From Chrysophaeum taylorii (taxonomy: Eukaryota > Sar > Pelagophyceae > Pelagomonadales > Pelagomonadaceae): 64,000 nucleotides of DNA. Below are positions 744 through 37,195 of this stretch, one piece after another. The notes beneath the pieces are model-generated. The model saw only the letters and a list, made by a program, of their open reading frames with translations, did no database searches and was not told the DNA's origin. The stretch covers positions 62,001 to 126,000 of the forward strand of contig JAQMWT010000553.1 in the NCBI GenBank assembly GCA_029834535.1. The letters are read 5' to 3'. The stretch's first letter is position 1. Each line of letters opens with the position of its first letter. The position numbers were made by a program, and so were the translations under genes.

Positions 744-1718
744 AATAACAACTTCAGCCCACAGTAAGTTCACCTATCTCTAACCCCAGTAAGTTCAGGT
801 CTGGTCCCAGTAAGTTCACCTAGTCCAAATCTCTAACCCCAGTAAGTTCGGCGTAAACCCACTCGTGCTCACGCCCACTCCTTCGAGCTCGTCGCTCTCA
901 CACCCGCCAATCCAAGCTGCTTTGATCCGCACGCGCCGCCAACCTTTGAGTTTGAGTTGCAAAAAACTCCAGTAAGCTCACCTGGCATACCCCAGTAAGT
1001 TCACCTGGTCACTATATTCACCTAGTCCCAATCTCAAACCCCAGTAAGTTCACCTGGTCCCAGTAAGTTCACTTACAGTGCGCGTGTAGACGCCGGGAGG
1101 GGGCTTATCGGTATTGCGGAGGTGCACGTGTGGAGTAGGGTGGAGTCGTCGACCCAGAAGAGCATACATATCCTCGGGGTTGCCGATCAACAGAGAGCCA
1201 CGTAGAGCTGGACGTGGCAGAAGACGGGCTTGTGGGCAAGAGGACGCCGACCTCGCGGGGCGTCTGGCCCTGGCTCTTGTTGATCGTTTGGCGTAGGCGG
1301 GCCTTAAGGGATACAGGTTGGAGGAGCCTCGGCGACAACGATACGATCAATGATGTATCTGGTAACGTTGCAGTGGCCGTGCGACGGGTCGAGGTTGCGA
1401 ATAGATTAAGCTCGCGATCAAAGTCAGCATCCCGTTGGTTGTTAGGGAGTTGAAAACTCTACTGTAAAGAGCGAGGCGTCGTCTTCCGACCCAGCCTAGT
1501 CAGCCGAAAAGAACTCCGACGCCTCGTCTCCGGGAAAAAAAGGCCGCGGTCATGCGCGCGTTGTCAGCATCGACAACATCGTTTCGACGGGGCGTGAGAA
1601 TGGCGCGCTGAAAGAGCCGCCGCGGCTCGTGGAAATAGTCTGCGAGGTCGCCGTAGACGGCTTGGAGGATCACTGTGTGGCTCGCGGGCCTACATGATCC
1701 TTGCCCTAAATTGGGGGA
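744..1718 (-). mobile_element. Helitron 3' part, right arm of the tail-to-tail pair
   Basis: This is an inverted copy of 1-743, joined through an (AAT)n-like spacer at 735-752. It reads on the minus strand from about 1718 (a TGATCCTTGCCCTAAATT flank) through helicase residues (RAILTPR, FFSAD, LRNLDP-like, INKSQGQT at about 1260-1290) into the GGTGAACTTACTGG repeats. The two arms make a palindrome of about 1.5 kb around position 745. The 1684-1718 end matches the left flank of the LINE target site seen elsewhere in the window. Confidence 0.7.
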
Positions 1719-1926
1719 CGCCTCGGCGATGACCCCGCCTAGGTCCCGCGTACTTATCTCCGCCCGTCAGGCACATACTCCCCACAAACCCACCCACATC
1801 CTTCATGCCCCACACCCCTCTAGCAGTCGACATTTAAAGACACCCCACACACCCCCTCTTAGCAGTCGACATTTAAAGACACCACACACCCCCTCTGGCA
1901 GTCGACATTTAAAGACAAACAAACAA
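1719..1926 (+). mobile_element. LINE 3' end with two further minimal 3' ends stacked on it
   Basis: 1719-1842 matches the last codons and 3' UTR of the LINEs at 10.6 and 20.2 kb (GCCTCGGCGATGACC to CAGTCGACATTTAAAGACA). It is followed by two copies of only the last 35-45 bp (1843-1881 and 1882-1926), each again ending GTCGACATTTAAAGACA. The right flank, 1927-1950, contains CTGTCGATTAGTAGTTAGG, which recurs at every empty site at 35-37 kb. The picture is a 5'-truncated insertion followed by extremely truncated insertions into the tail. Confidence 0.75.
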
Positions 1927-2000
1927 ACATCTGTCGATTAGTAGTTAGGACTGTCCGTTGACCCCCCCCCAAAAGCAAAATTAAGTAATGCCCCCAATAC

Positions 2001-2072
2001 TGTGAGGAAGCTATGACACTTACCCCTGCACCACGTCCCCATTATAGTTTCTCATCCCTTTTCAGTTCTCCA
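2001..2072 (+). repeat. 5' LTR of Copia copy 1
   Basis: A short terminal repeat opening TGTGAGGAAGCTATGACAC, matched at 5373-5447. A TGG-starting stretch follows directly, where a tRNA primer-binding site is expected. Confidence 0.8.
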
Positions 2073-5000
2073 TGGTAGCAGGTGTTCGTTTTTGTTTTTA
2101 GCTCCCATTGCACAGGCGCCTCGTTCTGTATTTTCCGCTATTCGTTGCTCCACCCCTCGTCCTGTATTTTCCCCTCGTCGTTGCTCCTCTCCTCGTTCTG
2201 TCTTTTCACCTCGTCGTTGCTCCCCTCCTCGTTCTGTATTTCGCCTATTCGTTGCTCCACTCCCCGTTGTGCATTTTCAGCTATTCGTTGATCCACTCCC
2301 CGTTGTGCATTTTCACCTATTCGTTGATCCACTCCTCGTTGTGCTTGTCGGTTTTGGTAAAACCAGCGAATCACGTTCCATCGCTCATTTCACCTGCCAC
2401 AACTAAGCTGTGCCTGTCAATTTTTCGCGTGCGCAGTTTTCGTGCTTCCTATGTGGTTGGATCGCCCATCTTCGGGATCCTAGACAGACGCTTCTTTGCT
2501 GTGTGATTTGTGGTTCTCCTTCACGCACTTTTTCGCCGCTTTTCTGACCTTTAAAATTCGGTTTTGCTATCGACGTGACTTCCGTGCTCAGCACCCGCGA
2601 CGCTATCTGCAATGTTCTTACGTGCCACTGCGACGCTATCTGCAAGCTATCTGCAACGTTCTTACGTGCCACAACTGTTTTGCCACTGTCGCCAACTTCT
2701 ACCGCAGCCTATTCGAGTATGACGAGCGAAGCTCGCCGCTTGCTCCTCCAACGTTGGCTCATATTAATTTCGTTCTTGCGACAGCGAAAACGGGCCACTT
2801 TCTTATGTGTCACAGCAGGCTGGCATACAGCAGCCTGGTCTACCTGTGTTCGTTCCTTACACCGCTGGCGCGTCCGAAGTCTTCTATCTTCGCGTACAGG
2901 ACGCGGTCGTGCCCATGGCAACTTGCTCGCGCCACAACAACCAAACACTCACGTTCGCATCAAACCTGTTTACGCTTGTTTTGGATTCTGTCGACTACGA
3001 CCATCGTCATACCCTGGTCACTATGCAGCATATTTACCAAAGGCCATCGTCATACCCGGTCACCATGCAGCATATTTGCCCAAAGGCCATTTCTCATCAG
3101 ACGTCTGGTACACGCCATCATATGTCCAGCCTGTGTTTCCGCTATCTTTGCCCCGCTGCGACAATCGTCTAACGCACGTCATCCCAGGCACTTTTGTCGC
3201 TATTGTTCTTCAGACCTCGATTTTGCTGACAGTTTCACTTACCCGATTTCCTGCAATGTCAATAGGGTCGGATAAGAAAACGAGACTAGCCCGCGCCGCA
3301 ACGACGGGTCCTACAACGCGTGGGCTTTTTCCTTTTTTTGCGTGAGGGGACGAAAGGATGCCGACTTCACTATGGGGACTAGTTCCATCGCGACGATCTC
3401 GCGGCGTGGCGGCACATACTGCTTGAGTACAAATGAACATAGCTCAGCGATCCGTTGAGTATGTCTTAGTACAAACTGAAACATAGTTAACGGCTCGTAC
3501 GAACTTTCTTATCCGACCCTAATGTCAACCACCGAAGGAACTTCAACGTTGTTCTGACTTTCTCGAATCACGCTTCCAAGCTCTCGTCTATTGTTCCCCC
3601 ATTGTCCGCTGTTCTTCCGCTGTTGCCCCCTTGTCCGCTGTTGCCCCCTTGCCCCCTGTGTTTGATGAGAATGCGCCGGTTTTACTGGGACTGATCACCC
3701 CATCACGTGAACCGACCATTCTACGAGCTCGAGAGAAAAGTACAAAAGAGCACCAAAGAGAGAAAACAACAGAAAGTGCAAAACAAAGTCGCGCCAAACG
3801 GAGCCGACCGCGCAAAGTCGACCAATGCGCGTTACAACAACCAACAAACTTTTTTTTACGGGCCATTCTGTTTCATCCTGTCACAATGTTGATACGGGCC
3901 ATTCCAATGTTGATACGGGCCATTCTGATGTCGATACGGGCCATTCTGTTTCCTCCTGTCACGATGTTGATTCTGTTTCCTCTGTCGCTTCTGTTTCCCC
4001 CTGTAACTCTTTGTATGTCTCTTCTGTTAGCTTTCGTTTGTTAGTTCATTAGGTCTTCCTTTCCCTTTGTTTAGCTAACACCCTTGTTGATCCTCATGCA
4101 CACGTTTATTACTCTGCTTCCGAAGAACTGTCGCAATATTCCGACCTTGACGAATACACTATCACTTCCACCCATCTACGTGAAGCTTTAGCTCCGACCA
4201 ATCCTGAGCGCCCTGGCTGGTTGCAAGCCATCGCTAAAGAATACAGCTCTCTTGGTCAGCTTGGTTGCTGGGATGTTATGCGCCTTCCTTCGACGTTTTC
4301 TGGCAACATTTGTACCCTCAAGTGGATCCTCCGCAAGAAGTATGACTCTGGCCGCTTCAAATCGTACAAGGCTCGCCTCGTTGTCCGCGGTTACACCCAG
4401 GTTCACGGCATTGCTTACCACGACACGTGCCGTCCTGTAGATGTCATCTCTGCTTTCACACAAGCCCCTGTCTGGCGTTGCTGTTCATGACTGGGATTTG
4501 CATAAGTTGGATGTCAACTCCGCTTTTATCCAAGCTCTCATTGACGAAGACATCTATGTCTGGCCACCCGAAGGCTATGCTCCTCGCCAACCCACCGATG
4601 GTTCCAAAATCGTTTACAAGCTCCGTCGCTCTTGGTATGGTTGCAAACAAGCTTGTCGCAATTGGTGGCTTTATTTGGAACGCTTCCTTCTCAATGATTG
4701 TGGCTTCGTCCGCGGATCTGGTGACACTTGCCATTACAAGCTCGTGCTCAATTCTACCGTGGTCCTCCGTCTCGTTTTAGTCTTTGATGATCTTCTTGTG
4801 GCGCACCCTCGTCATTGCATTGGCCATTACCAAGCCTTTTTCCTCCATATCCGCGCTTTCACTGACGTCAATGAACTTGATCTCACCTCTTACGTTGGCT
4901 TTTGAAGCTGAATTGCTCGCTCTTTACGCCGCTACTGCTGAGCTCTATTGGCTTCTCCAACTTTTTGATGACTTTGATCTCCATCGTCACACGGTACCAA

Positions 5001-5372
5001 TGTATGTCGATAATAGCACCACCGTCACCCAAGTCCGTCTCCAATGTCTCCCGCGGCGCACCCGCCATATTGATATTCGCTTTTACCGCCGAATATCATC
5101 GCAACCACATCATTGACCTCCAACATAGCGATATCTTCACCCGCAGTACGGAAGCTCCTTCCTTCCTCCGGCTTCGTGCTCGTTACCTCACCTCGCGACT
5201 TCGCCCTGATATCTCCTGTCTCTTTCTGCCACACTGCCTCTCCTGACGTCTTCCTTCAAGCTTCTCCTCTGTGAGTGTCTCACTTACCCCTTTTCCTTTT
5301 CTTTCTTTTCCAGCACCTGTGTGAGGATCTCACTTACAGCTTTTTATCCTTTTCTTTCTTTTCCAGCACCTG

Positions 5373-5447
5373 TGTGAGGAAGCTATGACACTTACCCCTG
5401 CACCACGTCCCCATTATAGTTCTCTCATCCCCTTTTCAGTTCTCACA
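5373..5447 (+). repeat. 3' LTR of Copia copy 1
   Basis: A 75-bp repeat beginning TG and ending CA, followed by AATAC, which duplicates the five bases before the 5' LTR. Confidence 0.85.
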
Positions 5448-6384: not shown

Positions 6385-6517
6385 CGTCGCCTGAGCTCCG
6401 AAGTACCGTTTTGTTCAGAGGAGCGAGAGGTTGTTAAAGTCTAACAGTCCGTTGAGTCGCGCCAAAAGCAATAAATGTCTCGCACTTCGAGGTCTGTCGC
6501 CCGCCTTTGACTGGCGA

Positions 6518-6772
6518 ATGCAGGTCGGTGAGGGCGGCGTGCGGCGGCGGCAGGTCGAGAACGAGCCGCCCGAGTTCGAGAAGCGCGCCGAGAAGCCCAT
6601 CACGGAAGAGGAGGCTCTGGCGAGGTTGTCCAGTTTCATAGCCACGGCCGCAAACGGCGGTCCGTTCGCGCCGCGAGACGACGTCCTCGCGCGGCTCCAC
6701 ATGATCCACAAAGCAATGAGTCGCGAAGCACCATCGCAGCCCAAGAAGCAGCGCAGAGAGTCGGCGCCCTGA
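6518..6772 (+). CDS. Small hypothetical ORF, divergent from the plastid-targeted gene
   Basis: 84 residues from the first ATG of the frame; the frame is open further upstream to 6431 but without an ATG. The sequence is charged (EEEALARLSSF, DDVLARLHMIHKAM) and ends in a basic KKQRR stretch that could be a nuclear signal. I recognise no family. A CAG/GT-like context at the ATG means it could equally be the last exon of a gene broken by the transposons. An identical copy lies at 16117-16371; the third unit is truncated before it. Confidence 0.3.
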   Translation: MQVGEGGVRRRQVENEPPEFEKRAEKPITEEEALARLSSFIATAANGGPFAPRDDVLARLHMIHKAMSREAPSQPKKQRRESAP

Positions 6773-6901
6773 ACGAAGGTATGCACACGCAGAAAGGAGG
6801 TTTTGCTCCGAAGACAAACGACGGAGACGTCCACCGGCTGCCTGAAATACATAGTGTGCGGATTGGACTCGCGGAGTGGTGGCTCCACCCTCGCATTACG
6901 C

Positions 6902-6921
6902 CCGCCATCGATGGCGGGCTC
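6902..6921. repeat. Perfect 20-bp palindrome
   Basis: GCCCGCCATCGATGGCGGGC is its own reverse complement. It could form a cruciform or an RNA hairpin in the 0.45 kb between the small ORF and the LINE. The same palindrome lies at 16504-16523. Confidence 0.6.
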
Positions 6922-7219
6922 TTGTATGTTTGGTGAAACCCTTGGCACCGAGTTCCAGAAGAATCAAATAGGGAGGGTTTTGTAACAGTGATTTGAATTG
7001 GGGTGTTATTATTAGTCCGTCGACGCTGAGGTTGGATGGAAGGCGAGCAGCAGGAGGAGCGGCTTGTCGATGCAGAAGTTGCCGAGCAGCAGCGGAAGGG
7101 CGGCGACACCGTCGTTGGCCCAGCCGTGGGAAATTTTAGCGTTCAATACGCGGGCCTACGTGATTACGCGGGCCTACGTGATCCTTACCCTAAATCGAGG
7201 GACAGACAGACAGTCACGT

Positions 7220-8851
7220 GACCTGAGCGATTTGCGCTCTGCGATCGACGAGGTCTCCATCAAAGACCTCATTATATCGCCGTGCTCTTGCATTCGCACC
7301 ATTCCCGCCCAATTCCGCGAGGCATGGGCGAGCGCAATGGCTGAAGTGTGTTCATGGTTTGAAGACGCCACTTCCGATAACGCTCGTGACCGTGCCCTCC
7401 TTTGGTACATGAGCCTTCACAGCCTACTTCTTCGGCGAGCACCACGAGGCGGCGCCCGTCGGCCCGACGTGCTCACTGACCGCTTTACAGCCTTCGCCGC
7501 AGGGCGTTACGACCTCCTCATTGACGGCTACCTCCACGACGTGACTCGCGTGCGCTCCCATGTACGCTCACGGGCGGCCCCGACGATGACGCGGACGCAC
7601 TTCGTGCATTGCGACTCGCTGAATCTGGCGACCTCTCTCGGGCGTGCCGTATTCTCACCAGCCTGGGCATCGCCGACCCCTGCCACCCAGACGTCATGCG
7701 CCAACTCGTGTCCAAACATCCTGCTCGCAAGGAGGACCTTCACACTTTCCCCAACCACCCGCAAGGGCTCGCCACACTCTCGGTCGCCCTGCGTGAAACT
7801 TACCGCACGCTCCGGCCGAAGGCTGGTGTGGGCCCCGACCAGTGCCGCAATGAATTCCTCTCCGTTTTCGCCCAGCCCTTCCCGAGCAACGTCAAGGCAC
7901 GCTCGGCGATGGACAAAATCGACAACCTTGAGACCTTGTTCGTTCGGGGGAGCTCTTCCTGACTGGTATTACTTCATCACCACCACGGTAACCCTCATTC
8001 CGTTGGTAAAACGACGCGCCGCTGACGCTAACCAAGCACCTGACGTTCGACCTATCGGCATTGGCACCGTCCGCCGCCGTGCCACTGGACGGTGCCTTGT
8101 GCGTAGCCTCCACTCCGAGCTCTCTGAGGCACTGTACCCGATCAACGTTGCCGTCGGGGTCAAGGGCGGCCCCTCGCGCCTCGTCTTTGGCGTCCGCATC
8201 CACGCGGAGCAGTACCCCGACCAGGTCATCATCAAGCTGGACAAACGCAACGCCTTCAACGAGCTCAAGCGCCGGACCGTCGTGGACAAACTCGCAAACC
8301 ACGCCAACGCTAAGCTGCGTGCCTTTGGCCACTTTATGTTCAAGCAATTGCGGCCGGCATCCTGGGTGGCCCTCCACGGCCCCACCGGCCTCGATCGTGC
8401 CCCCGACTCTCAAGAAGGCGGCCAGCAAGGCGACCCCACCTATCCACCGGCGTACTGTCTGGCAACGCATGACGCCGCTCAGGCCCTTGACACCCGCTTA
8501 CGTTCATGTGCCGGCTACGCCCGATTTGGCATGGACGACGGCGTCATCTCTGGTTCCCCTCGTGAAGTTGTCGACGCCCTCCTGCAGTACGCCCGCGACA
8601 TCCAAGCTAGCGGCGAGGAGCTCCGCCTCGACAAGTGCGAGGCGTTCTGTCCGGCACTTGGCATGGGGCTTCTCGACCACCCCGATGTTCACGACCACGT
8701 CCAAGTTGCGCCTGACGGCACGCGTACTCTTGCTGGTATCCCCGTTGTCGCCGACGGCCTCGTAATCTACGGTGTGCCCATCGGCTCCCCGGCCACGCCG
8801 GAGATGCCTATGTCGAAGCTACCTTGCAACGCGAGGTTGACGCTCAGGTGA
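7220..8851 (+). pseudogene. LINE ORF, reverse-transcriptase half (copy 1)
   Basis: Three overlapping open stretches. 7220-7580 is an N-terminal region with many Trp and Arg. 7609-7962 includes the family motif AESGDLSRACRILTSLGIAD and a GVGPDQCRNEFL block matching the GPSG-type finger motif of these RTs. 8000-8851 carries the palm with NAFN, QQGDP and the catalytic pair in FGMDDG. The frame is not continuous, so this copy is not expected to be active. Confidence 0.75.
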
Positions 8852-10638
8852 GCTACATGAGCCGTATTCGCACCAAGCTCCAGAACGTCTCCCTCCACTG
8901 CATGTACTCGTTGGGCCGCTACTGCATCGCCCCGCGCATGGACTACATCGCGCAACACTGCTACCCCGCCAATGCCTTGAGCGCGCTCCGCCGCTTCGAC
9001 GTTGCCGCCCTCAGCTTCGTCGCCACAGCACTTGGCGCAGATCCGCGTCAGGTTTTTGACTCCAACGGCATCGTCCTCCAACGCCTCCGTCTTCCTGCTC
9101 GAAGTGGGGGTGGCGGCATTCGCTCCTGCGCCGACCTCAGCCCCGCCGCCTTTGTTGGCACGGCGGCCCAGGCCCTCCCACACCTCGTCGACCTTCGCGA
9201 TCCTACGGGTGCCTTGGAGGTCCCTGGCTACCTCCCCCGCCTCGCCTCGGTCCTGGGTGCCACTTCTTTTCGCACAGTTAACGAGTTGCACCGTTGGCAC
9301 CACCTCCTCGCATCCGGTTGCCGCCTGGGGCGGGCACTCGAGACTGCGTGGGACGGACTTCGGGCTGATCTCCGTACCACGCTGGCTTCCCACGGCGGCG
9401 CTGGTTCCGGCGACCCCGCCAACGTTCATCTCGTCGACGGTCCTCTCTCCCACGAATTCGTCTCCATGGGCGTCCTCGTCGACCCCACCATCTCGACACC
9501 CGTGCTCATACCCCAACTCCAGCGTGCTCTAACCTCCCAGCGCGAGACAGCTCGGGCCACTGCACTCCAGCGCCTTGCGGCCACCCTTCCCATCACCGAA
9601 GCACTTCGAGTAGCGGCGTCCTCATGGGATCGCTTCTCGACCACGTTCATCAGCTCGTGGCCCAGCTCTGGCCTTCAAATCCCCAACCGCTGCTGGGCTG
9701 AGATGTGTGCCCAGTACTTTGGCTACCCCTCTCCAGCTTGTTTGGGCCTCGTGGGCACTCGCATTCTGGGCACTGACGTCGTTCTCGACGCTCACGGCAA
9801 GGTGCTTCTCACGCAGGCCAACCTTGTCAACCGCGGAGGAGCGCGGACCACCTGGCATGACGGCCAGCTCGACTGCGTCCACGGCAGCGTCAAAGAGGCC
9901 GGCATCCCAGCCCTGTCCGAGGTTTTCGGCATCTTTGCTGACGTCGTCGCCCCTACCATTCGCACGCGCCTCTACGGCCGGTACCGAGGCAATCTCGCCC
10001 GACGTCAAGTCGTCCCAGACATCCTCACCACGCTCGACAACAAGGAGCAACTCTACGACATCAAAACCCTCGCTTGGGGTTCGTTGTACACCGCCCACGC
10101 CCTCCATCCCTCCCACCCGTCGCCTGTCGATCGGCGCGCAGCGCAAGTCCACTCCGAATACCTCGCTCACGCCCGCGGCATCGACGCCATCATCCCCCAG
10201 CCGGGTACAGCACCACCGCCTGGCTTCTTGGGCCCTGTCGAACAGCGGCTACGTAGCTACGGCACCGTCGCCGGCCTCGTCTTTGGTGCCTTCGGTGAGG
10301 CCAGCGCGGCGTGCCAGGCTCTCGCCCAAACATGCGCAGAGCGCATCGCTGCGCGAACCTGGGTGACAAGCGGCTGCGCCAACTTCACAGAGGCAAAGGC
10401 GGCCCAAACTCGCCGCATCTACCGTGAGTGGGGGATCGCCAACGCATTAGGCCGGGCTCGCTGTGCCCTCACCGCCCTCACCCATGTCGCCGCCTCGGGG
10501 AACCCCGCCCAGGCCGCCCGATCCCAGCAGGACGTCACCCTTCGTCGCACATACGTCCGGCGGCAGCATGCGTACGACCTACGGGCGGGGCCCGTCCTCT
10601 CTTCGCCTGCCCCACGCCTCGGCGATGACCCCGACTAG
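8824..10638 (+). pseudogene. LINE ORF, C-terminal half with a PD-X12-DIK nuclease-like motif (copy 1)
   Basis: An open frame of about 600 codons. The first 150 residues follow the RT thumb of this LINE family. Further on, RRQVVPD (PD at 10015-10020), then 12 residues, then DIK (10057-10065) fit the PD-(D/E)XK pattern of restriction-like endonucleases. In R2-type LINEs such a domain follows the RT and makes the target-site nick. Motif spacing supports the call; the fold is not proven. The frame opens with a non-ATG codon because it is the downstream side of a frameshift, not an independent gene. Confidence 0.65.
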
Positions 10639-10771
10639 GTCCCGCGTACTTATCTCCGCCCGTCAGGCACATCCCTCATACCCCACAAACCCACCCACAT
10701 CCTTCATGCTCCCCACACACACCCCCCTCTTAGCAGTCGACATTTAAAGACAGACAGACACAAACCCACCC

Positions 10772-16371: not shown

Positions 16372-16820
16372 ACGAAGGTATGCACACGCAGAAAGGAGGT
16401 TTTGCTCCGAAGACAAACGACGGAGACGTCCACCGGCTGCCTGAAATACATAGTGTGCGGATTGGACTCCTCGCGGAGTGAGTGGCTCCACCCCTCGCAT
16501 TACGCCCGCCATCGATGGCGGGCTCTTGTATGTTTGGTGAAACCCTTGGCACCGAGTTCCAGAAGAATCAAATAGGGAGGGTTTTGTATGAACAGTGATT
16601 TGAATTGGGGTGTTATTATTAGTCCGTCGACGCTGAGGTTGGATGGAAGGCGAGCAGCAGGAGGAGCGGCTTGTCGATGCAGAAGTTGCCGAGCAGCAGC
16701 GGAAGGGCGGCGACACCGTCGTTGGCCCAGCCGTGGGAAATTTTAGCGTTCAATACGCGGGCCTACGTGATTACGCGGGCCTACGTGATCCTTACCCTAA
16801 ATCGAGGGACAGACAGACAG

Positions 16821-19800
16821 TCACGTGACCTGAGCGATTTGCGCTCTGCGATCGACGAGGTCTCCATCAAAGACCTCATTATATCGCCGTGCTCTTGCAT
16901 TCGCACCATTCCCGCCCAATTCCGCGAGGCATGGGCGAGCGCAATGGCTGAAGTGTGTTCATGGTTTGAAGACGCCACTTCCGATAACGCTCGTGACCGT
17001 GCCCTCCTTTGGTACATGAGCCTTCACAGCCTACTTCTTCGGCGAGCACCACGAGGCGGCGCCCGTCGGCCCGACGTGCTCACTGACCGCTTTACAGCCT
17101 TCGCCGCAGGGCGTTACGACCTCCTCATTGACGGCTACCTCCACGACGTGACTCGCGTGCGCTCCCATGTACGCTCACGGGCGGCCCCCGACGATGACGC
17201 GGACGCACTTCGTGCATTGCGACTCGCTGAATCTGGCGACCTCTCTCGGGCGTGCCGTATTCTCACCAGCCTGGGCATCGCCGACCCCTGCCACCCAGAC
17301 GTCATGCGCCAACTCGTGTCCAAACATCCTACTCGCAAGGAGGACCTTCACACTTTCCCCAACCACCCGCAAGGGCTCGCCACACTCTCGGTCGCCCTGC
17401 GTGAAACTTACCGCACGCTCCGGCCGAAGGCTGGTGTGGGCCCCGACCAGTGCCGCAATGAATTCCTCTCCGTTTTCGCCCAGCCCTTCCCGAGCAACGT
17501 CAAGGCACGCTCGGCGATGGACAAAATCGACAACCTTGAGACCTTGTTCGTTCGTGGGAGCTCTTCCTGACTGGTTATTACTTCATCACCACCACGGTAA
17601 CCCTCATTCCGTTGGTAAAACGACGCGCCGCTGACGCTAACCAAGCACCTGACGTTCGACCTATCGGCATTGGCACCGTCCGCCGCCGTGCCACTGGACG
17701 GTGCCTTGTGCGTAGCCTCCACTCCGAGCTCTCTGAGGCACTGTACCCGATCAACGTTGCCGTCGGGGTCAAGGGCGGCCCCTCGCGCCTCGTCTTTGGC
17801 GTCCGCATCCACGCGGAGCAGTACCCCGACCAGGTCATCATCAAGCTGGACAAACGCAACGCCTTCAACGAGCTCAAGCGCCGGACCGTCGTGGACAAAC
17901 TCGCAAACCACGCCAACGCTAAGCTGCGTGCCTTTGGCCACTTTATGTTCAAGCAATTGCGGCCGGCATCCTGGGTGGCCCTCCACGGCCCCACCGGCCT
18001 CGATCGTGCCCCCTTCGACTCTCAAGAAGGCGGCCAGCAAGGCGACCCCACCTATCCACCGGCGTACTGTCTGGCAACGCATGACGCCGCTCAGGCCCTT
18101 GACACCCGCTTACGTTCATGTGCCGGCTACGCCCGATTTGGCATGGACGACGGCGTCATCTCTGGTTCCCCTCGTGAAGTTGTCGACGCCCTCCTGCAGT
18201 ACGCCCGCGACATCCAAGCTAGCGGCGAGGAGCTCCGCCTCGACAAGTGCGAGGCGTTCTGTCCGGCACTTGGCATGGGGCTTCTCGACCACCCCGATGT
18301 TCACGACCACGTCCAAGTTGCGCCTGACGGCACGCGTACTCTTGCTGGTATCCCCGTTGTCGCCGACGGCCTCGTAATCTACGGTGTGCCCATCGGCTCC
18401 CCGGCCACGCCGGAGATGCCTATGTCGAAGCTACCTTGCAACGCGAGGTTGACGCTCAGGTGAGCTACATGAGCCGTATTCGCACCAAGCTCCAGAACGT
18501 CTCCCTCCACTGCATGTACTCGTTGGGCCGCTACTGCATCGCCCCGCGCATGGACTACATCGCGCAACACTGCTACCCCGCCAATGCCTTGAGCGCGCTC
18601 CGCCGCTTCGACGTTGCCGCCCTCAGCTTCGTCGCCACAGCACTTGGCGCAGATCCGCGTCAGGTTTTTGACTCCAACGGCATCGTCCTCCAACGCCTCC
18701 GTCTTCCTGCTCGAAGTGGGGGTGGCGGCATTCGCTCCTGCGCCGACCTCAGCCCCGCCGCCTTTGTTGGCACGGCGGCCCAGGCCCTCCCACACCTCGT
18801 CGACCTTCGCGATCCTACGGGTGCCTTGGAGGTCCCTGGCTACCTCCCCCCTCGCCTCGGTCCTGGGTGCCACTTCTTTTCGCACAGTTAACGAGTTGCA
18901 CCGTTGGCACCACCTCCTCGCATCCGGTTGCCGCCTGGGGCGGGCACTCGAGACTGCGTGGGACGGACTTCGGGCTGATCTCCGTACCACGCTGGCTTCC
19001 CACGGCGGCGCTGGTTCCGGCGACCCCGCCAACGTTCATCTCGTCGACGGTCCTCTCTCCCACGAATTCGTCTCCATGGGCGTCCTCGTCGACCCCACCA
19101 TCTCGACACCCGTGCTCATACCCCAACTCCAGCGTGCTCTAACCTCCCAGCGCGAGACAGCTCGGGCCACTGCACTCCAGCGCCTTGCGGCCACCCTTCC
19201 CATCACCGAAGCACTTCGAGTAGCGGCGTCCTCATGGGATCGCTTCTCGACCACGTTCATCAGCTCGTGGCCCAGCTCTGGCCTTCAAATCCCCAACCGC
19301 TGCTGGGCTGAGATGTGTGCCCAGTACTTTGGCTACCCCTCTCCAGCTTGTTTGGGCCTCGTGGGCACTCGCATTCTGGGCACTGACGTCGTTCTCGACG
19401 CTCACGGCAAGGTGCTTCTCACGCAGGCCAACCTTGTCAACCGCGGAGGAGCGCGGACCACCTGGCATGACGGCCAGCTCGACTGCGTCCACGGCAGCGT
19501 CAAAGAGGCCGGCATCCCAGCCCTGTCCGAGGTTTTCGGCATCTTTGCTGACGTCGTCGCCCCTACCATTCGCACGCGCCTCTACGGCCGGTACCGAGGC
19601 AATCTCGCCCGACGTCAAGTCGTCCCAGACATCCTCACCACGCTCGACAACAAGGAGCAACTCTACGACATCAAAACCCTCGCTTGGGGTTCGTTGTACA
19701 CCGCCCACGCCCTCCATCCCTCCCACCCGTCGCCTGTCGATCGGCGCGCAGCGCAAGTCCACTCCGAATACCTCGCTCACGCCCGCGGCATCGACGCCAT

Positions 19801-20386
19801 CATCCCCCAGCCGGGTACAGCACCACCGCCTGGCTTCTTGGGCCCTGTCGAACAGCGGCTACGTAGCTACGGCACCGTCGCCGGCCTCGTCTTTGGTGCC
19901 TTCGGTGAGGCCAGCGCGGCGTGCCAGGCTCTCGCCCAAACATGCGCAGAGCGCATCGCTGCGCGAACCTGGGTGACAAGCGGCTGCGCCAACTTCACAG
20001 AGGCAAAGGCGGCCCAAACTCGCCGCATCTACCGTGAGTGGGGGATCGCCAACGCATTAGGCCGGGCTCGCTGTGCCCTCACCGCCCTCACCCATGTCGC
20101 CGCCTCGGGGAACCCCGCCCAGGCCGCCCGATCCCAGCAGGACGTCACCCTTCGTCGCACATACGTCCGGCGGCAGCATGCGTACGACCTACGGGCGGGG
20201 CCCGTCCTCTCTTCGCCTGCCCCACGCCTCGGCGATGACCCCGACTAGGTCCCGCGTACTTATCTCCGCCCGTCAGGCACATCCCTCATACCCCACAAAC
20301 CCACCCACATCCTTCATGCTCCCCACACACACCCCCTCTTAGCAGTCGACATTTAAAGACAGACAGACAGTTAAAGACAGACAGGC
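16821..20386 (+). mobile_element. RLE-type-like LINE, copy 2, 5'-truncated
   Basis: The duplicate of copy 1, with the same left flank (CCTTACCCTAAATCGAGG plus GACA repeats) and the same 5' truncation point. It keeps the frame at about 17.19 kb that copy 1 lost (RSRAAPDDDADALRALRL is continuous) but has its own 1-bp change near 18.85 kb. RT motifs NAFN, EGGQQGDP and FGMDDG and the PD-X12-DIK motif are present. The C-terminal frame runs to a stop at 20248. The 3' tail runs into the tandem array at 20387. Confidence 0.85.
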
Positions 20387-22578
20387 GCAACTCTACGACA
20401 TCAAAACCCTCGCTTGGGGTTCGTTGTACACCGCCCACGCCCTCCATCCCTCCCACCCGTCGCCTGTCGATCGGCGCGCAGCGCAAGTCCACTCCGAATA
20501 CCTCGCTCACGCCCGCGGCATCGACGCCATCATCCCCCAGCCGGGTACAGCACCACCGCCTGGCTTCTTGGGCCCTGTCGAACAGCGGCTACGTAGCTAC
20601 GGCACCGTCGCCGGCCTCGTCTTTGGTGCCTTCGGTGAGGCCAGCGCGGCGTGCCAGGCTCTCGCCCAAACATGCGCAGAGCGCATCGCTGCGCGAACCT
20701 GGGTGACAAGCGGCTGCGCCAACTTCACAGAGGCAAAGGCGGCCCAAACTCGCCGCATCTACCGTGAGTGGGGGATCGCCAACGCATTAGGCCGGGCTCG
20801 CTGTGCCCTCACCGCCCTCACCCATGTCGCCGCCTCGGGGAACCCCGCCCAGGCCGCCCGATCCCAGCAGGACGTCACCCTTCGTCGCACATACGTCCGG
20901 CGGCAGCATGCGTACGACCTACGGGCGGGGCCCGTCCTCTCTTCGCCTGCCCCACGCCTCGGCGATGACCCCGACTAGGTCCCGCGTACTTATCTCCGCC
21001 CGTCAGGCACATCCCTCATACCCCACAAACCCACCCACATCCTTCATGCTCCCCACACACACCCCCCCCTCTTAGCAGTCGACATTTAAAGACAGACAGA
21101 CAGTTAAAGACAGACAGGCGCAACTCTACGACATCAAAACCCTCGCTTGGGGTTCGTTGTACACCGCCCACGCCCTCCATCCCTCCCACCCGTCGCCTGT
21201 CGATCGGCGCGCAGCGCAAGTCCACTCCGAATACCTCGCTCACGCCCGCGGCATCGACGCCATCATCCCCCAGCCGGGTACAGCACCACCGCCTGGCTTC
21301 TTGGGCCCTGTCGAACAGCGGCTACGTAGCTACGGCACCGTCGCCGGCCTCGTCTTTGGTGCCTTCGGTGAGGCCAGCGCGGCGTGCCAGGCTCTCGCCC
21401 AAACATGCGCAGAGCGCATCGCTGCGCGAACCTGGGTGACAAGCGGCTGCGCCAACTTCACAGAGGCAAAGGCGGCCCAAACTCGCCGCATCTACCGTGA
21501 GTGGGGGATCGCCAACGCATTAGGCCGGGCTCGCTGTGCCCTCACCGCCCTCACCCATGTCGCCGCCTCGGGGAACCCCGCCCAGGCCGCCCGATCCCAG
21601 CAGGACGTCACCCTTCGTCGCACATACGTCCGGCGGCAGCATGCGTACGACCTACGGGCGGGGCCCGTCCTCTCTTCGCCTGCCCCACGCCTCGGCGATG
21701 ACCCCGACTAGGTCCCGCGTACTTATCTCCGCCCGTCAGGCACATCCCTCATACCCCACAAACCCACCCACATCCTTCATGCTCCCCACACACACCCCCC
21801 CTCTTAGCAGTCGACATTTAAAGACAGACAGACAGTTAAAGACAGACAGGCGCAACTCTACGACATCAAAACCCTCGCTTGGGGTTCGTTGTACACCGCC
21901 CACGCCCTCCATCCCTCCCACCCGTCGCCTGTCGATCGGCGCGCAGCGCAAGTCCACTCCGAATACCTCGCTCACGCCCGCGGCATCGACGCCATCATCC
22001 CCCAGCCGGGTACAGCACCACCGCCTGGCTTCTTGGGCCCTGTCGAACAGCGGCTACGTAGCTACGGCACCGTCGCCGGCCTCGTCTTTGGTGCCTTCGG
22101 TGAGGCCAGCGCGGCGTGCCAGGCTCTCGCCCAAACATGCGCAGAGCGCATCGCTGCGCGAACCTGGGTGACAAGCGGCTGCGCCAACTTCACAGAGGCA
22201 AAGGCGGCCCAAACTCGCCGCATCTACCGTGAGTGGGGGATCGCCAACGCATTAGGCCGGGCTCGCTGTGCCCTCACCGCCCTCACCCATGTCGCCGCCT
22301 CGGGGAACCCCGCCCAGGCCGCCCGATCCCAGCAGGACGTCACCCTTCGTCGCACATACGTCCGGCGGCAGCATGCGTACGACCTACGGGCGGGGCCCGT
22401 CCTCTCTTCGCCTGCCCCACGCCTCGGCGATGACCCCGACTAGGTCCCGCGTACTTATCTCCGCCCGTCAGGCACATCCCTCATACCCCACAAACCCACC
22501 CACATCCTTCATGCTCCCCACACACACCCCCCCCTCTTAGCAGTCGACATTTAAAGGCAGACAGACACAAACCCACCC
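20387..22578 (+). repeat. Tandem array of the LINE 3' end, three extra about 730-bp units
   Basis: Units are 20387-21119, 21120-21851 and 21852-22578. They repeat the last 730 bp of LINE copy 2 (from GCAACTCTACGACATC at 19657). Each runs from just before the DIK motif to the GACA tail and each keeps an open frame of 184 codons from an in-frame ATG (20424-20978, 21157-21711, 21889-22443). The joints read GACAGACAGGCGCAACTC, so each unit starts immediately after a tail. The units are almost identical, indicating recent amplification. Confidence 0.85.
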
Positions 22579-27744: not shown

Positions 27745-27882
27745 CGTCGCCTGAGCTGCGAAGTGCCGTTTTGTTCAGAGGAGCACATCACTGCCGCGAG
27801 AGGTTATCATTGCTGCGAGAGGTTATTATTTAAAGTCCAAAACAGTCCGTTGAGTCCCGCCAAAAGCAATAAATGTCTCTAA

Positions 27883-27914
27883 ATGTCGACTGCTAAGAGG
27901 GGGGGGTGTGTGTA
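27883..27914 (-). mobile_element. Minimal LINE 3' end at the break of the third unit
   Basis: AAATGTCGACTGCTAAGAGG followed by a G/TG run is the reverse complement of the last 30 bp of the LINE. It lies exactly where unit 3 of the triplication stops and 56 bp before the ETF-beta start codon, so it is now part of that gene's upstream region. Confidence 0.65.
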
Positions 27915-28996: not shown

Positions 28997-29105
28997 AAAA
29001 AAAAGGTGTCGGGAGCGGTGTGTTCGTAGTAGTTTGGGAAGGTGTGAGTGCTTAGTCAGTCAAGGCACCCATTTTGGCACCTAGAACGCGGATGTACCCC
29101 GAAGC

Positions 29106-31273: not shown

Positions 31274-31417
31274 GTTGTCTTTAAATGTCGACTGCTAAGA
31301 GGGGGGTGTGTGTGGGGAGCCTTGTTGTTGTCTTTAAATGTCGACTTCTAAGAGGGGGGGGCGCGTGTGGGGAGCATGAAGGATTGTTGTTGTCTTTAAA
31401 TGTCGACTGTTGTTGTC
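31274..31417 (-). mobile_element. Stack of three minimal LINE 3' ends
   Basis: Three copies of the motif AAATGTCGACTnCTAAGAGG (reverse-complement sense) at about 31282, 31335 and 31398. Each is preceded by TTGTTGTTGTCTTT and the first two are followed by a G-run and TGTGTGG or CGTGTGG. Each keeps only 20-70 bp of the LINE 3' end. The flanking TTGTTGTTGTC differs from the TGTC tails elsewhere. Confidence 0.65.
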
Positions 31418-32519
31418 TTCCTCCTCTTCGTATTTCTGGCGCTCTGCCTTGCATTTCTTCGTTTTCGATTTCTAATCACCGAATTGGGGGAAACACTTAA
31501 GCTCGCTGGCCATATGCCGGTTCGATGACGCCAGGCTCGAGGTCATCATACTAACACCTGCACTCGCAGCGCTTCCAGACAGCAAAGACGCGCTGCTTGC
31601 GCGGCGCTCTTCTGCGTTTTTTTTTGGCACTCGTCCTCCTCTTTATCTTTCGCTGCGAGCTCCGACTCCTTCTCGGGGTTTGCCTCGAGCAGATTCGACT
31701 GCGTAGTCGGGTCGTATCCATCGGTATTGCGGCGGCAGCAGTTCACGCAGCAAATAGTCTAGCACATCATAACATTGTTGCATTCAAAAAACACTTCTCG
31801 ACCGCAACAGCTACGTATCGTCCATGTCCGTCGTCAAATAATAATTCGCGGCTCGCGTTGTTGTTTTTTTGTCGAAGTAGTCGAAGAAAAATAGTCCTCG
31901 AGTTTCAAGGTGTGACGCAAGTCATAGATCACTCGCGAATGATACCTGCATCGACCTCATCCTTGCGCACACCAGGGTAGATGCCCTTTTCGGCTTTTCT
32001 AGGTTCCGAGGCAACCCCCGGGCGCGACATTTGCGTCGGACGATCTCTCGAAGCCTTTTTATTCTCTGGTCACGGGCGCGTTCTTCTTCCTTTTGAGGCT
32101 CATCTTCCGCACCATTCCCGACGAGGCTTTTATTTGGAACCAACGGCTCAGAGGTGGGAGCTGAGAAGAGTTTTTTAATGTTGACTGCTACGAGGGTTGA
32201 GGGGGGGCGAAAGCGAGGACGCAGGTGCGTGGAGGGAGCAGAGGTGGGTTTTTGAGAGCCGGTCAAGGCTTCGTGTCCGCAATCAACACTTCCAAGCCCG
32301 ACCATCCTACGTACTGCGATATCATGATGCGGCGGTGGCTCCTTATGGCGCTTTACGGCAGGGAGCCTGCCACCGCTAAGGTGTCCCTTCCTTCGGTCCT
32401 TCCTTCCTTCTATAGCAAATGGCTCGTATACGAGCCTGTCGATTCAATCTGTCGTGTTACTCGCTGCTGCGTCCGGGAACTCGAACATTCCTCCACAATA
32501 CCCTATCATGACGAACTTC
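31418..32519. other. 1.1 kb without a recognisable gene
   Basis: Open frames of up to 127 codons exist on both strands (31597-31980 plus; 31922-32305 minus), but neither shows a domain, a convincing composition or similarity to anything else in the window. I would not call them genes. Confidence 0.4.
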
Positions 32520-32816
32520 TTTTGTTGTTGGTCTTTAAATGTCGACTGCTAAGAGGGGGGGTGTGTGTGGGTTTGTTGTTGGTCTTCCTCAATGTCCTAA
32601 CTACTAATCGACAGATGTTTGTCTGTCTATTTGTCTGTCTGTCTGTCTGTCTTTAAATGTCGACTGCTAAGAGGGGGGGGTGTGTGTGGGGAGCATGAAG
32701 GGTGTGGGTCTGTCTGTCTGTCTTTAAATGTCGACTGCTAAGAGGGGGGGGTGTGTGTGGGGAGCATGAAGGATGTGGGTGGGTGGTGTCTGTCTGTCTG
32801 TCTTTAAATGTCGACT
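32520..32816 (-). mobile_element. Ladder of minimal LINE 3' ends
   Basis: In minus sense, at least three pieces of the LINE 3' end (about 45-75 bp each, at about 32720-32790, 32636-32710 and 32530-32575) follow the tail of the longer fragment at 32817-33932. Each ends GTCGACATTTAAAGAC plus (GACA)n or a CAACAACAAA variant. Between the last two lies the flank containing CCTAACTACTAATCGACAG (32594-32620), the right side of the LINE target site. Confidence 0.75.
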
Positions 32817-33932
32817 GCTAAGAGGGGGGGGTGTGTGTGGGGAGCATGAAGGATGTGGGTGGGTTTGTGGGGTATGAGGGATGTGCCTGACGGGCGGAGA
32901 TAAGTACGCGGGACCTAGTCGGGGTCATCGCCGAGGCGTGGGGCAGGCGAAGAGAGGACGGGCCCCGCCCGTAGGTCGTACGCATGCTGCCGCCTGACGT
33001 ATGTGCGACGAAGGGCGACGTCCTGCTGGGATCGGGCGGCCTGGGCGGGGTTCCCCGAGGCGGCGACATGGGTGAGGGCGGTGAGGGCACAGCGAGCCCG
33101 GCCTAATGCGTTGGCGATCCCCCACTCACGGTAGATGCGGCGAGTTTGGGCCGCCTTTGCCTCTGTGAAGTTGGCGCAGCCGCTTGTCACCCAGGTTCGC
33201 GCAGCGATGCGCTCTGCGCATGTTTGGGCGAGAGCGTGGCACGCCGCGCTGGCCTCACCGAAGGCACCAAAGACGAGGCCGGCGACGGTGCCGTAGCTAC
33301 GTAGCCGCTGTTCGACAGGGCCCAAGAAGCCAGGCGGTGGTGCTGTACCCGGCTGGGGGATGATGGCGTCGATGCCGCGGGCGTGAGCGAGGTATTCGGA
33401 GTGGAATTGCGCTGCGCGCCGATCGACAGGCGACGGGTGGGAGGGATGGAGGGCGTGGGCGGTGTACAACGAACCCCAAGCGAGGGTTTTGATGTCGTAG
33501 AGTTGCTCCTTGTTGTCGAGCGTGGTGAGGATGTCTGGGACGACTTGACGTCGGGCGAGATTGCCTCGGTACCGGCCGTAGAGGCGCGTGCGAATGGTAG
33601 GGGCGACGACGTCAGCAAAGATGCCGAAAACCTCGGACAGGGCTGGGAAGCCGGCCTCTTTGACGCTGCCGTGGACGCAGTCGAGCTGGCCGTCATGCCA
33701 GGTGGTCCGCGCTCCTCCGCGGTTGACAAGGTTGGCCTGCGTGAGAAGCACCTTGCCGTGAGCGTCGAGAACGACGTCAGTGCCCAGAATGCGAGTGCCC
33801 ACGAGGCCCAAACAAGCTGGAGAGGGGTAGCCAAAGTACTGGGCACACATCTCAGCCCAGCAGCGGTTGGGGATTTGAAGGCCAGAGCTGGGCCACGAGC
33901 TGATGAACGTGGTCGAGAAGCGATCCCATGAG
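32817..33932 (-). mobile_element. LINE 3' fragment, 1.1 kb, 5'-truncated
   Basis: It covers the last 311 codons and the 3' UTR of the LINE. The left flank in its own sense (33933-33975) is CCTTACCCTAAATCGAGG plus GACA units; the right flank is at 32594-32620. Both flanks match the empty site inside the Helitron units. The sequence is close to copies 1 and 2, so the insertion is fairly recent. Confidence 0.85.
32915..33850 (-). pseudogene. LINE ORF fragment with the nuclease-like motif
   Basis: 311 codons remain open from the in-frame MCAQYFGYPSP to the normal stop. The PD-X12-DIK pair and its spacing are intact. Only a few residues differ from the other copies (for example Phe for Ile in EAGFPALSEV). 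It has no promoter or RT domain and is a by-product of 5' truncation. Confidence 0.7.
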
Positions 33933-36900
33933 GAAGCCGTCTGTCTGTCCCTCGATTTAGGGTAAGGATCAGGTAGGCCCGAGAGTAAGGATCAGGTAGG
34001 CGCGAGAGCCAGACAGTGATCGTCCAAGCCGTCTACGGCGCCAGTAAGTTCACCTAGTCCCAATCTCTAACCCCAGTAAGTTCACCTAATCCCAGTAAGT
34101 TTCATATAAGTTCACCTGGTCAGTAAGTTCACCTAGCTCTAACCAACTCCTTTGAGCTCGTCGCTCTCGCCTCCGCCAATCTAAGCTGCTTTGATCCGCA
34201 CGCGCCGCCAATCTTTTTTTTTTACTCTAAAAACCCTTTACTCTAAAACCCCCAGTAAGTTCACCTGGTCCCAGTAAGTTCACCTGGTCACTCAGTTCAC
34301 CTAGTCCCAATCTCAAACCCCAGTAAGTTCACCTCGTCCCAGTAAGTTCACCTATCGTCCCAGTAAGTTCACCTATAGTGCGCGTGTAGACGCCGGGAGG
34401 GGGCTTATCGGTATTGCGCAGCACGTGTGGGGTAGGGTGGAGTCGTCGACCCAGATGAGTATATCCTCGGGGATGCCGATCGACAGAGAGCCACGTAGAG
34501 CTGGACGTGACAGAAGACGGGCTTGTGGGCAAGAGGATGCGGACCTCGCGGGGCGTCTGGTCCTGGCTCTTGTTGATCGTTTGGCGTAGGCGGGCCTTAA
34601 GGGGTACAGGGTGGAGGAGCCTCGGTGACACGACACGATCGATCATGTATCTGGTACCGTTGCAGTGGCCGTGCGACGGGTCGAGGTTGCGAAGACTTTA
34701 AGCTCGCGATCAAAGTCAGCATGCCGTTGGTTGTCAGGGAGTTGAAAACTCTACTGTAAAGAGCGAGGCGTCGTCTTCCGACCCAGCCTAGTCAGCCGAA
34801 AAGAACTCCGACGCCTCGTCTCCGGGAAAAAAGGGCCGCGGTCATGCGCGCGTTGTCAGCATCGACAACATCGTTTCGACGGGGCGTGAGAATGGCGCGC
34901 TGAAAGAGCCGCCGCGGGTCGTGGAAACAGTCTGCGAGGTCGCCGTAGACGGCTTGGAGGATCAATGCCTTGGCTCGCGGGCCTACCTGATCCTTACTCT
35001 CGCGCCTTTCTGATCCTTACCCTAAATCGAGGGACAAACAGACAGACAGACAAACATCTGTCGATTAGTAGTTAGGACTTACAAGTGCAGGCCAGTAAGT
35101 TCACCTAGCCCCAATCTCTAACCCCAGCATTTTCACCCCATTAAGTTCACCTAGTCCCAATCTCTAACCCCAGTAAATTCGGCGTAAGCCCACTCGTGCT
35201 CACACCCACTCACCCCACTCTCCTTCGAGCTCGTCGCTCTCACCTCGGCCAATCTAAGCTGCTTCGATCCGCACACGCCGCTAGCCTTTGCGTTCACTCT
35301 AAAAACCCCAGTAAGTTCACCTGGTCTCAGTAAGTTCACCTGGTCACTATATTCACCTAGTCCCAATCTCAAACCCCAGTAAGTTCACCTGGTCCCAGTA
35401 AGTTCACCTACAGTGCGCGTGTAGACGCCGGGAGGGGGCTTATCGGTATTGCGCAGCACGTGTGGGGTAGGGTGGAGTCGTCGACCCAGATGAGTATATC
35501 CTCGGGGATGCCGATCGACAGAGAGCCACGTAGAGCTGGACGTGACAGAAGACGGGCTTGTGGGCAAGAGGATGCGGACCTCGCGGGGCGTCTGGTCCTG
35601 GCTCTTGTTGATCGTTTGGCGTAGGCGGGCCTTAAGGGGTACAGGGTGGAGGAGCCTCGGTGACACGACACGATCGATCATGTATCTGGTACCGTTGCAG
35701 TGGCCGTGCGACGGGTCGAGATTGCGAAGACATTAAGCTCGCGATCAAAGTCAGCATGCCGTTGGTTGTCAGGGAGTTGAAAACTCTACTGTAAAGAGCG
35801 AGGCGTCGTCTTCCGACCCAGCCTAGTCAGCCGAACTCCGAACTCCGACGCCTCGTCTCCGGGAAAAAAGGGCCGCGGTCATGCGCGCGTTGTCAGCATC
35901 GACAACATCGTTTCGACGGGGCGTGAGAATGGCGCGCTGAAAGAGCCGCCGCGGGTCGTGGAAATAGTCTGCGAGGTCGCCGTAGACGGCTTGGAGGATC
36001 ACTGTCTGGCTCTCGCGCCTGCCTGATCCTTACTCTCGCGCCTACCTGATCCTTACCCTAAATCGAGGGACAAACAGACAGACAGACAAACAAACAGACA
36101 GACAGACAGACAAACATCTGTCGATTAGTAGTTAGGACAAGTGCAGGCCAGTAAGTTCGCCAGTAAGTTCACCTGGTCCCAATCTCTAACCCCAGTAAGT
36201 TCACCTGGTCCCAGTAAGTTCACCTAGTCCCAATCTCTAACCCCAGTAAGTTCGGCGTAAGCCCACTCGTGCTCACATCCACTCACCCCACTCTCCTTCG
36301 AGCTCGTCGCTCTCGCCTCCGCCAATCTAAGGCGCTTTGATCCGCACACGCCGCTAACCTTTGAGTTTACTCTTAAACCCCCAGTAAGTTCACCTGATCC
36401 CAGTAAGTTCACCTGGTCACTAAGTTCACCTAGTCCCAATCTCAAACCCCAGTAAGTTGGTCCCAGTAAGTTCACCTACAGTGCGCGTGTAGACGCCGGG
36501 AGGGGCTTATCGGTATTGCGCAGCACGTGTGGGGTAGGGTGGAGTCGTCGACCCAGATGAGTATATCTCCTCGGGGTTGCCGATCGACAGAGAGCCACGT
36601 AGAGCTGGACGTGGCAGAAGACGGGCTTGGGAAAGAGGACGCCGACCTCGCGGGGCGTCTGGCCCTGGCTCTTGGTGATCGTTTGGCGTCGGCGGGCCTT
36701 ACGGGATACAGGTTGGAGGAGCCTCGGTGACAACGACACGATCGATCATGTATCTGGTACCGTTGCAGTGGCCGTGCGACGGGTCGAGGTTGCGAAGACA
36801 TTAAGCTCGCGATCAAAGTCAGCATGCCGTTGGTTGTCAGGGAGTTGAAAACTCTACTGTAAAGAGCGAGGCGTCGTCTTCCGACCCAGCCTAGTCAGCC

Positions 36901-37139
36901 GAAAAGAACTCCGACGCCTCGTCTCCGGGAAAAAAGGGCCGCGGTCATGCGCGCGTTGTCAGCATCGACAACATCGTTTCGACGGGGCGTGAGAATGGCG
37001 CGCTGAAAGAGCCGCCGCGGGTCGTGGAAATAGTCTGCGAGGTCGCCGTAGACGGCTTGGAGGATCACTTTCTGGCTCTCGCGCCTACCTGATGCTTACT
37101 CTCGCGCCTACATGATCCTTACCCTAAATCGAGGGACAA

Positions 37140-37170
<31 letters not shown>

Positions 37171-37195
37171 AACATCTGTCGATTAGTAGTTAAGA
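33933..37195 (-). mobile_element. Tandem array of three Helitron 3' parts
   Basis: Three units of about 1.03-1.07 kb lie head to tail on the minus strand (the same landmark AGTGCGCGTGTAGACGCC is at 34377, 35412 and 36480). Each unit reads, in its own sense: the flank with (TGTC)n and CCTCGATTTAGGGTAAGG; a helicase C-terminus (VYGDLADYF, RAILTPR, FFSAD, LRNLDP, CNGTR, INKSQGQT, QLYVAL); then a 3' region iterating GGTGAACTTACTGG. No unit has a Rep domain. Between units lies CTGTCGATTAGTAGTTAGG. Tandem 3' parts fit rolling-circle replication past the terminator or later unequal crossing-over. Confidence 0.75.

What the first reader, a model, noticed from the sequence alone, without database searches (positions are those of the whole stretch)
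1684..37193. The LINE appears to target one specific (GACA)n site carried by the Helitron repeat
Empty sites with the form CCTTACCCTAAATCGAGG-(GACA)n-CTGTCGATTAGTAGTTAGG lie inside the Helitron array at about 35012-35078, 36048-36138 and 37113-37193. The same two flanks bracket LINE DNA at 1684-1950 and, in reverse, at 32594-33975. The left flank also abuts both long LINE copies (about 7160-7213 and 16770-16820). Five two-sided matches at one microsatellite are hard to explain by chance. Site specificity is the known behaviour of LINEs with a restriction-like endonuclease, and this LINE has a matching motif. A LINE parasitising another transposon would be spread wherever the Helitron goes. The specificity is inference; the flanks are read directly.
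Basis: partly seen in the sequence, partly recalled or inferred. Interest (0 to 1): 0.8.

Follow-up and report, generated by a model that had tools for sequence, protein, structure and literature searches.

The report
LINE landing in GACA-type repeats
A LINE-type jumping gene has landed several times in a GACA repeat carried by a Helitron transposon, but the same LINE also landed at other GAC-type sequences outside the Helitron, so it seems to follow a short DNA motif and not the Helitron itself.

Summary
The flanks are real. Three empty sites, L-(GACA)n-R, lie in a tandem array of ~1.06 kb Helitron-derived units (helicase remnant matches Helraiser, E = 1.1e-9). LINE DNA begins after L at three sites with different 5' truncation points: A (1718), B (7213), C (33939, minus). 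R follows the LINE at A and C only. The two long copies are one insertion copied by segmental duplication; their right side runs into a copia-like repeat. So the 'five two-sided matches' are three paralogous empty sites plus two filled ones; independent events number about three.

'One specific site' is not supported. The same LINE 3' end occurs at four further loci (27.9, 31.3-31.4, 32.5, 56.7 kb, minus) without L/R, with 12-18 bp direct repeats around the insert; one of them lies ~20 bp outside Helitron C. At 7 of 7 loci the pre-insertion flank reads RRGAC. Best reading: target-primed reverse transcription at short GAC(A)-type sites matching the LINE's own ...AAAGAC end, the Helitron's (GACA)n being a multicopy instance. 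Still open: the only little-diverged pieces over ~100 bp (3 of 3) sit at the Helitron. Microsatellite- and transposon-targeting LINEs are already known. No genome was held, so genome-wide preference is untested.

The parts
1699..1949 (+). Site A: L (3 mismatches) 1699-1716, LINE piece from 1718 with three stacked 3' ends (to ~1916), R 1931-1949
7183..10760 (+). Site B: L 7183-7200, (GACA)3, long LINE copy 7213-10760; no R, tail runs into a copia-like repeat
16790..22567 (+). Segmental duplicate of B (L 16790-16807, LINE to 20369) with three further ~733 bp LINE units sharing one 5' join
32596..33967 (-). Site C: L 33950-33967, LINE piece from 33939 down, three stacked 3' ends, R 32596-32614
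35015..35076 (+). Empty site 1: L-(GACA/AACA)n-R
36051..36136 (+). Empty site 2: L-(GACA/AACA)n-R
37117..37194 (+). Empty site 3: L-(GACA/AACA)n-R (R with 1 mismatch)
34041..37195 (-). Array of Helitron-derived units (about 36138-37195, 35082-36137 and a partial one below 35077), coding sense on minus; the microsatellite is ~23 bp inside the 5' end
   Evidence: boundaries read by eye
80..364 (+). Degenerate Helitron helicase C-terminal remnant in an inverted unit (1-~742)
   Evidence: Helraiser 7lcc E = 1.1e-9 over 35 residues, Pif1 0.016; Pfam Pif1_2B_dom 8.7e-05, 22.6 bits, cut-off 23.9
27875..27912 (-). Locus D: ~35 bp LINE 3' end between two copies of GAGACATTTATT
31277..31420 (-). Locus E: three stacked LINE 3' ends at GACAACAACA; the upstream-most holds only ~13 bp of LINE
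32531..32590 (-). Locus F: ~36 bp LINE 3' end at GACCAACAACAAA, about 20 bp outside the Helitron end of site C
56662..56720 (-). Locus G: ~33 bp LINE 3' end between two copies of TAAAGACAAACAACATCC; sequence just upstream resembles an older LINE tail
8824..10638 (+). LINE C-terminal reading frame with PD-X12-D-x-K (PDILTTLDNKEQLYDIK); RT-like frame lies upstream at 7064-8851

Best explanation
A non-LTR retrotransposon (LINE) with an RT-like domain and a restriction-like PD-(D/E)xK motif inserts by target-primed reverse transcription at short RRGAC sites, mostly followed by AAC- or GACA-type simple sequence, which match its own RNA 3' end (...TTTAAAGAC). The (GACA)n near the 5' end of a non-autonomous Helitron is one multicopy instance and was hit about three times; GAC-type sites outside it were hit at least four times. 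Each LINE tail rebuilds the target, so later copies stack there. Shown: junctions, direct repeats round the inserts, common motif, different truncation points, stacking. Inferred: that the nuclease makes the choice, and that pairing of the RNA end with the target helps.
For: Three truncation points directly after L plus GAC(A). Four loci without L/R with direct repeats of 12, 12, 15 and 18 bp; at 19,935 random points in 38-64 kb 0.33% reach 12 and 0.04% reach 15. RRGAC in the pre-insertion flank at 7 of 7 loci, against 5.9% of random 18-base stretches. Stacked tails at A, C, E and in the duplicate of B. RT-like domain and PD-X12-D-x-K.
Against: The motif was read from the same loci that it explains; A, B and C share one target, so only 5 target sequences are distinct. 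At G the motif may come from an older LINE tail, and F lies beside Helitron C. Part of each direct repeat (the leading A's, GAC) is also in the LINE tail, so true duplications may be 2-4 bp shorter; in the repeat-rich whole window 2.2% of random points reach 12. The copies outside the Helitron are very short (~13-60 bp), and could be another tail-sharing element. RVT_1 is below its cut-off, and PD-x-DxK patterns also occur by chance (27 of 2000 shuffles; once inside the RT frame).
Confidence: 0.72

Rival explanations
1. Helitron-site specialist: the LINE recognises L and/or R around the (GACA)n, and the other loci are rare off-target events.
For: All 3 of 3 little-diverged LINE pieces over ~100 bp (A, B, C) sit at the Helitron site, 0 of 4 other loci hold one.
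Against: 4 of 7 loci with a readable 3' end lack L and R and share only GAC-type sequence.
Confidence: 0.15
2. One insertion copied with the Helitron: A, B and C descend from a single LINE-carrying Helitron, later trimmed.
For: B demonstrably spread by segmental duplication; Helitrons can carry inserts (general knowledge).
Against: LINE starts at positions 3402, 1 and ~2402 at A, B and C, each directly after L plus GAC(A), and stack joins differ between A and C.
Confidence: 0.07
3. Break-driven insertion: the LINE cDNA joins at breaks in simple repeats by microhomology with its AAAGAC end, without site choice by its own nuclease.
For: The common feature is identity between target and RNA 3' end.
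Against: 12-18 bp direct repeats suggest staggered nicks; a nuclease-like motif is present.
Confidence: 0.12

Closest known systems
RLE-encoding LINEs in microsatellites (DongAg, DongBg; Togen in (TG)n; some HERO)
   Same: PD-(D/E)xK-type LINEs inserted into simple repeats (PMC3636483 section 8 read; PMC4640811 passages)
   Different: Target here is GAC(A)-type sequence; clade of this LINE not placed; no CCHC found by one pattern
Crocodilian Utopia (NeSL clade)
   Same: Relaxed specificity: insertions outside the main target at short target-like sequences (PMC4640811 passages)
   Different: Utopia's main target is U2 snRNA genes and duplications are rarely seen there; here direct repeats of 12-18 bp are seen
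LINEs targeting other transposons (e.g. Tx1L in a Xenopus DNA transposon, recalled)
   Same: Another TE serves as target; 'other TEs' are listed as LINE targets in PMC8869645 (passage)
   Different: Tx1L has an apurinic-type nuclease (Tx1 clade, PMC4640811 passage); here the Helitron is not the exclusive target
DINE-1/HINE (Helentron) elements and (GTCY)n-bearing lepidopteran MITEs
   Same: Non-autonomous elements that carry a microsatellite; GTCT repeats are the complement of AGAC repeats (PMC4067079, PMC9659126 passages)
   Different: No subTIR pair found here; no LINE at the microsatellite is mentioned in the passages seen

Membership tests
RLE-type non-LTR retrotransposon (R2 group) | Reverse transcriptase of RVT_1 type | tested here: inconclusive
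   RVT_1 E = 0.013, 15.6 bits against cut-off 29.6; QGDP and MDD motifs read
RLE-type non-LTR retrotransposon (R2 group) | PD-(D/E)xK nuclease C-terminal to the RT | tested here: inconclusive
   PD-X12-D-I-K in the downstream frame, same in the duplicate and in C; similar patterns in 27 (14 with a preceding R/K) of 2000 shuffles; fold prediction unusable, pLDDT 36.6
RLE-type non-LTR retrotransposon (R2 group) | CCHC motif near the nuclease | tested here: not met
   One pattern search of the two frames found none in the C-terminal frame; both long copies are frame-shifted, so a lost motif is possible. Hence filed as a LINE that works like this group, not as a placed member
RLE-type non-LTR retrotransposon (R2 group) | Place in an RT tree | not tested
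   No relatives found to align
Microsatellite-targeting LINE | Repeated independent insertion in one type of simple repeat | tested here: met
   A, B, C in (GACA)n; E, F, G in AAC/GACA-type sequence; D in GAGACATTTATT, which is not a clear repeat
Helitron | RepHel-type helicase | tested here: met
   Degenerate remnant of 95 residues matching Helraiser at E = 1.1e-9; the Rep part was not looked for
Helitron | 5' TC and 3' CTRR ends | tested here: inconclusive
   5' TC at 5 of 5 R contexts; 3' end CTTG, not CTRR, at 4 of 4 places found with that end as query
Helentron (HINE/DINE-1) | subTIRs near both ends | tested here: not met
   Local score 6 for the 5' end against the reversed 3' end; a smaller random comparison had median 6

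The most novel reading that the evidence does not exclude
A two-transposon pair: the LINE's long copies live on a GACA landing pad carried by an amplifying Helitron, which supplies it with new safe sites, while insertions at other GAC(A) sites remain only as tails of a few dozen bases. The Helitron would then set where the LINE can persist.
Probability: 0.17. Interest if true: 0.55.

Novelty: new member of a known kind. Interest (0 to 1): 0.33.

Why it matters
Microsatellite- and transposon-targeting LINEs are known, but here filled sites, empty sites, independent truncations and direct repeats lie together in one stretch, so the rule that chooses the site can be read almost directly. If long copies prove confined to the Helitron, it would be a clear case of one transposon making habitat for another.

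Tried and rejected
Rejected: L and R as imperfect inverted repeats forming a hairpin (local score 7; 500 random pairs gave median 6, 99th percentile 10). Rejected: Helentron-type subTIRs (score 6). Rejected: the flanks as part of the LINE, since L abuts three LINE positions and R is absent from stack joins. Rejected: counting the two long copies as separate events.

Led nowhere: viral-contig scans with the C-terminal frame, the LINE 3' end (19), the L flank (20) and the RT frame (46: 2 pattern hits, none confirmed); genome contigs with the RT frame (47: 9 pattern hits, none confirmed); phage tblastn with the C-terminal frame (50); PDB sequences with either frame (21: none at E up to 1; 22: one chance match, E = 1.3); Rfam and tRNA scans of the window (48, 49: none); single-sequence fold of the nuclease region (34, unusable). 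The host organism was not identified. Paper searches that could have shown a LINE at a Helitron microsatellite listed nothing on point; one search was very restrictive and returned nothing.
Full report
Observation. L is exact at six places and has three mismatches at 1699-1716; R is exact at four places and has one mismatch at 37176-37194. Between L and R the three empty sites carry GACA/AACA repeats. Site A (1699-1949) and site C (32596-33967, minus) have LINE DNA between L and R.

How many events. Self-comparison shows 6161-10760 repeated at 15760-20369 (99.6%) and 10043-15781 at 21848-27581 (99.4%). The two long LINE copies are thus one insertion, B, duplicated with its surroundings. Three further ~733 bp LINE units between 20383 and 22567 share one 5' join and look like tandem amplification. 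The three empty sites are copies of one tandem unit. Independent insertions at the Helitron site are therefore about three: A, B and C. Their LINE sequence begins at LINE positions 3402, 1 and about 2402, each directly after L plus GAC(A). Because L meets three different parts of the LINE, L is target and not LINE.

Why B lacks R. After (GACA)3, B reads CAAACCCACC and then a ~75 bp repeat, TGTGAGG...CTCACA, that recurs ~4.2 kb downstream; the interval holds a copia-type reverse transcriptase fragment (RVT_2, E = 1e-15; only the copy at 14009-14473 was scanned). At 2000-5447 a copy of this element is bounded by AATAC on both sides (read directly); at B left and right flanks do not match, which suggests recombination. 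R is covered or lost there, so B is a one-sided match.

The Helitron. The ~1.06 kb unit carries a degenerate helicase on the strand opposite to the LINE. The stop-free stretch 80-364 matches Helraiser (E = 1.1e-9 over 35 residues), Pif1 helicases at 0.016 and weaker, and Pfam Pif1_2B_dom at 8.7e-05, just below its cut-off. In coding sense the unit starts TC(C/T)TAACTACTAATCGACAG (TC at 5 of 5 R contexts) and ends ...CTGCACTTG (4 of 4 places found with that end as query), beyond which sequences differ. CTTG departs from the canonical CTRR (PMC4067079, passage). The target microsatellite lies ~23 bp inside the 5' end. B keeps only about 54-62 bp of unit-like sequence on its left.

Counter-examples. 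A search for CAGTCGACATTTAAAGAC with up to two edits gives 17 hits: 3 at A, 5 at B and its duplicate, 3 at C, and 6 at four other loci: D 27875-27893 (1), E 31277-31411 (3, stacked), F 32531-32550 (1), G 56667-56686 (1), all minus. In a blastn with the LINE these match over 39-46 bp at 93-100%, with one E piece at 85.5% over 69 bp. Direct repeats around them are GAGACATTTATT (12), AAGACAACAACA (12), AAGACCAACAACAAA (15) and TAAAGACAAACAACATCC (18). At about 20,000 random points in 38-64 kb 0.33% reach 12 and 0.04% reach 15; in the whole, repeat-rich window 2.2% and 1.3%. The leading A's and GAC are also in the LINE tail, so true duplications may be a few bases shorter. The upstream-most copy in E holds only ~13 bp of LINE. 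Flanks of D-G have no match to the Helitron unit better than E = 0.4, while A, B and C give 4e-115, 4e-14 and 8e-24. F, however, starts about 20 bp outside the Helitron end at C, so only D, E and G are truly remote, and the sequence just upstream of G resembles an older LINE tail. A diverged relic at 29094-29356 (75.5% over 274 columns) also lacks L and R (best flank match to the unit 22 bp, E = 0.045); an internal relic lies at 41328-42529.

Common target. The pre-insertion flank reads RRGAC at 7 of 7 loci: GGGAC at A, B and C (one shared target), GAGAC at D, AAGAC at E, F and G. An 18-base random stretch holds RRGAC 5.9% of the time, so 4 of 4 outside L/R is unlikely by chance, though the motif was read from these same loci. 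A narrower form, RRGAC[A/C]AACA with the middle base optional, fits 15 places: 9 at LINE ends or their repeats, 3 at the empty Helitron sites, 3 elsewhere and empty; it does not fit B, D or the left side of C. The LINE's own end is TTTAAAGAC, so target and RNA end match.

Mechanism. The best account is target-primed reverse transcription: a nick beside GAC(A), priming with the LINE RNA end, a second nick roughly 10-18 bp away, heavy 5' truncation, and stacking because each tail rebuilds the target. Junctions, direct repeats, truncations and stacking are shown; the nicking enzyme and RNA-target pairing are inferred. The LINE has an RT-like domain (RVT_1 E = 0.013, below cut-off) and PD-X12-D-x-K downstream (a looser form also occurs once inside the RT frame and in 27 of 2000 shuffles), but no CCHC by one pattern search, and the fold prediction was of no use (pLDDT 36.6). 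Its clade is not placed. Both long copies are frame-shifted.

What is known. RLE LINEs in microsatellites (Dong families: PMC3636483, section 8 read; Togen (TG)n and HERO: PMC4640811, passages) and LINEs targeting other TEs (PMC8869645, passage) are in print. Crocodilian Utopia shows relaxed use of target-like sequences (PMC4640811, passage). Helitron-like elements carrying microsatellites are known (PMC4067079, passages), and (GTCY)n is reported in lepidopteran MITEs (PMC9659126, passages). So this is a new member of a known kind, with a target not met in the papers seen. The claim of one specific Helitron site fails in this window, but preference for the Helitron among longer copies (3 of 3 little-diverged pieces over ~100 bp; diverged relics left out) is not excluded.

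Limits. No genome is held for the window, no relative was found in the viral, prokaryotic or phage collections searched, and the host is unidentified. Seven loci in 64 kb cannot give a genome-wide rate.

Noticed in passing
2000-5447, 10771-15015, 22578-26830: Three copies of a copia-like element with a very short (~75 bp) terminal repeat TGTGAGG...CTCACA; the first has matching AATAC flanks, the other two have mismatched flanks.
   Followed up: partly
1-1484: Large imperfect palindrome (87.7% identity to its own reverse complement): two Helitron units head to head.
   Followed up: partly
41328-42529: Diverged LINE relic that overlaps the first ~205 codons of a 614-residue frame (41912-43756) whose later part is a dihydrouridine synthase (Dus) domain.
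   Followed up: no
37680-37744 and 37900-37964: Exact 65 bp direct repeat that reads into GGGGCTATATATACCCC.
   Followed up: no
6161-27784: Segmental duplication of ~9.6-11.8 kb holding LINE and copia-like elements, with a LINE stack in the second copy.
   Followed up: partly
29094-29356: Older LINE relic (75.5%) beside a papain-family protease gene (29524-30735).
   Followed up: partly
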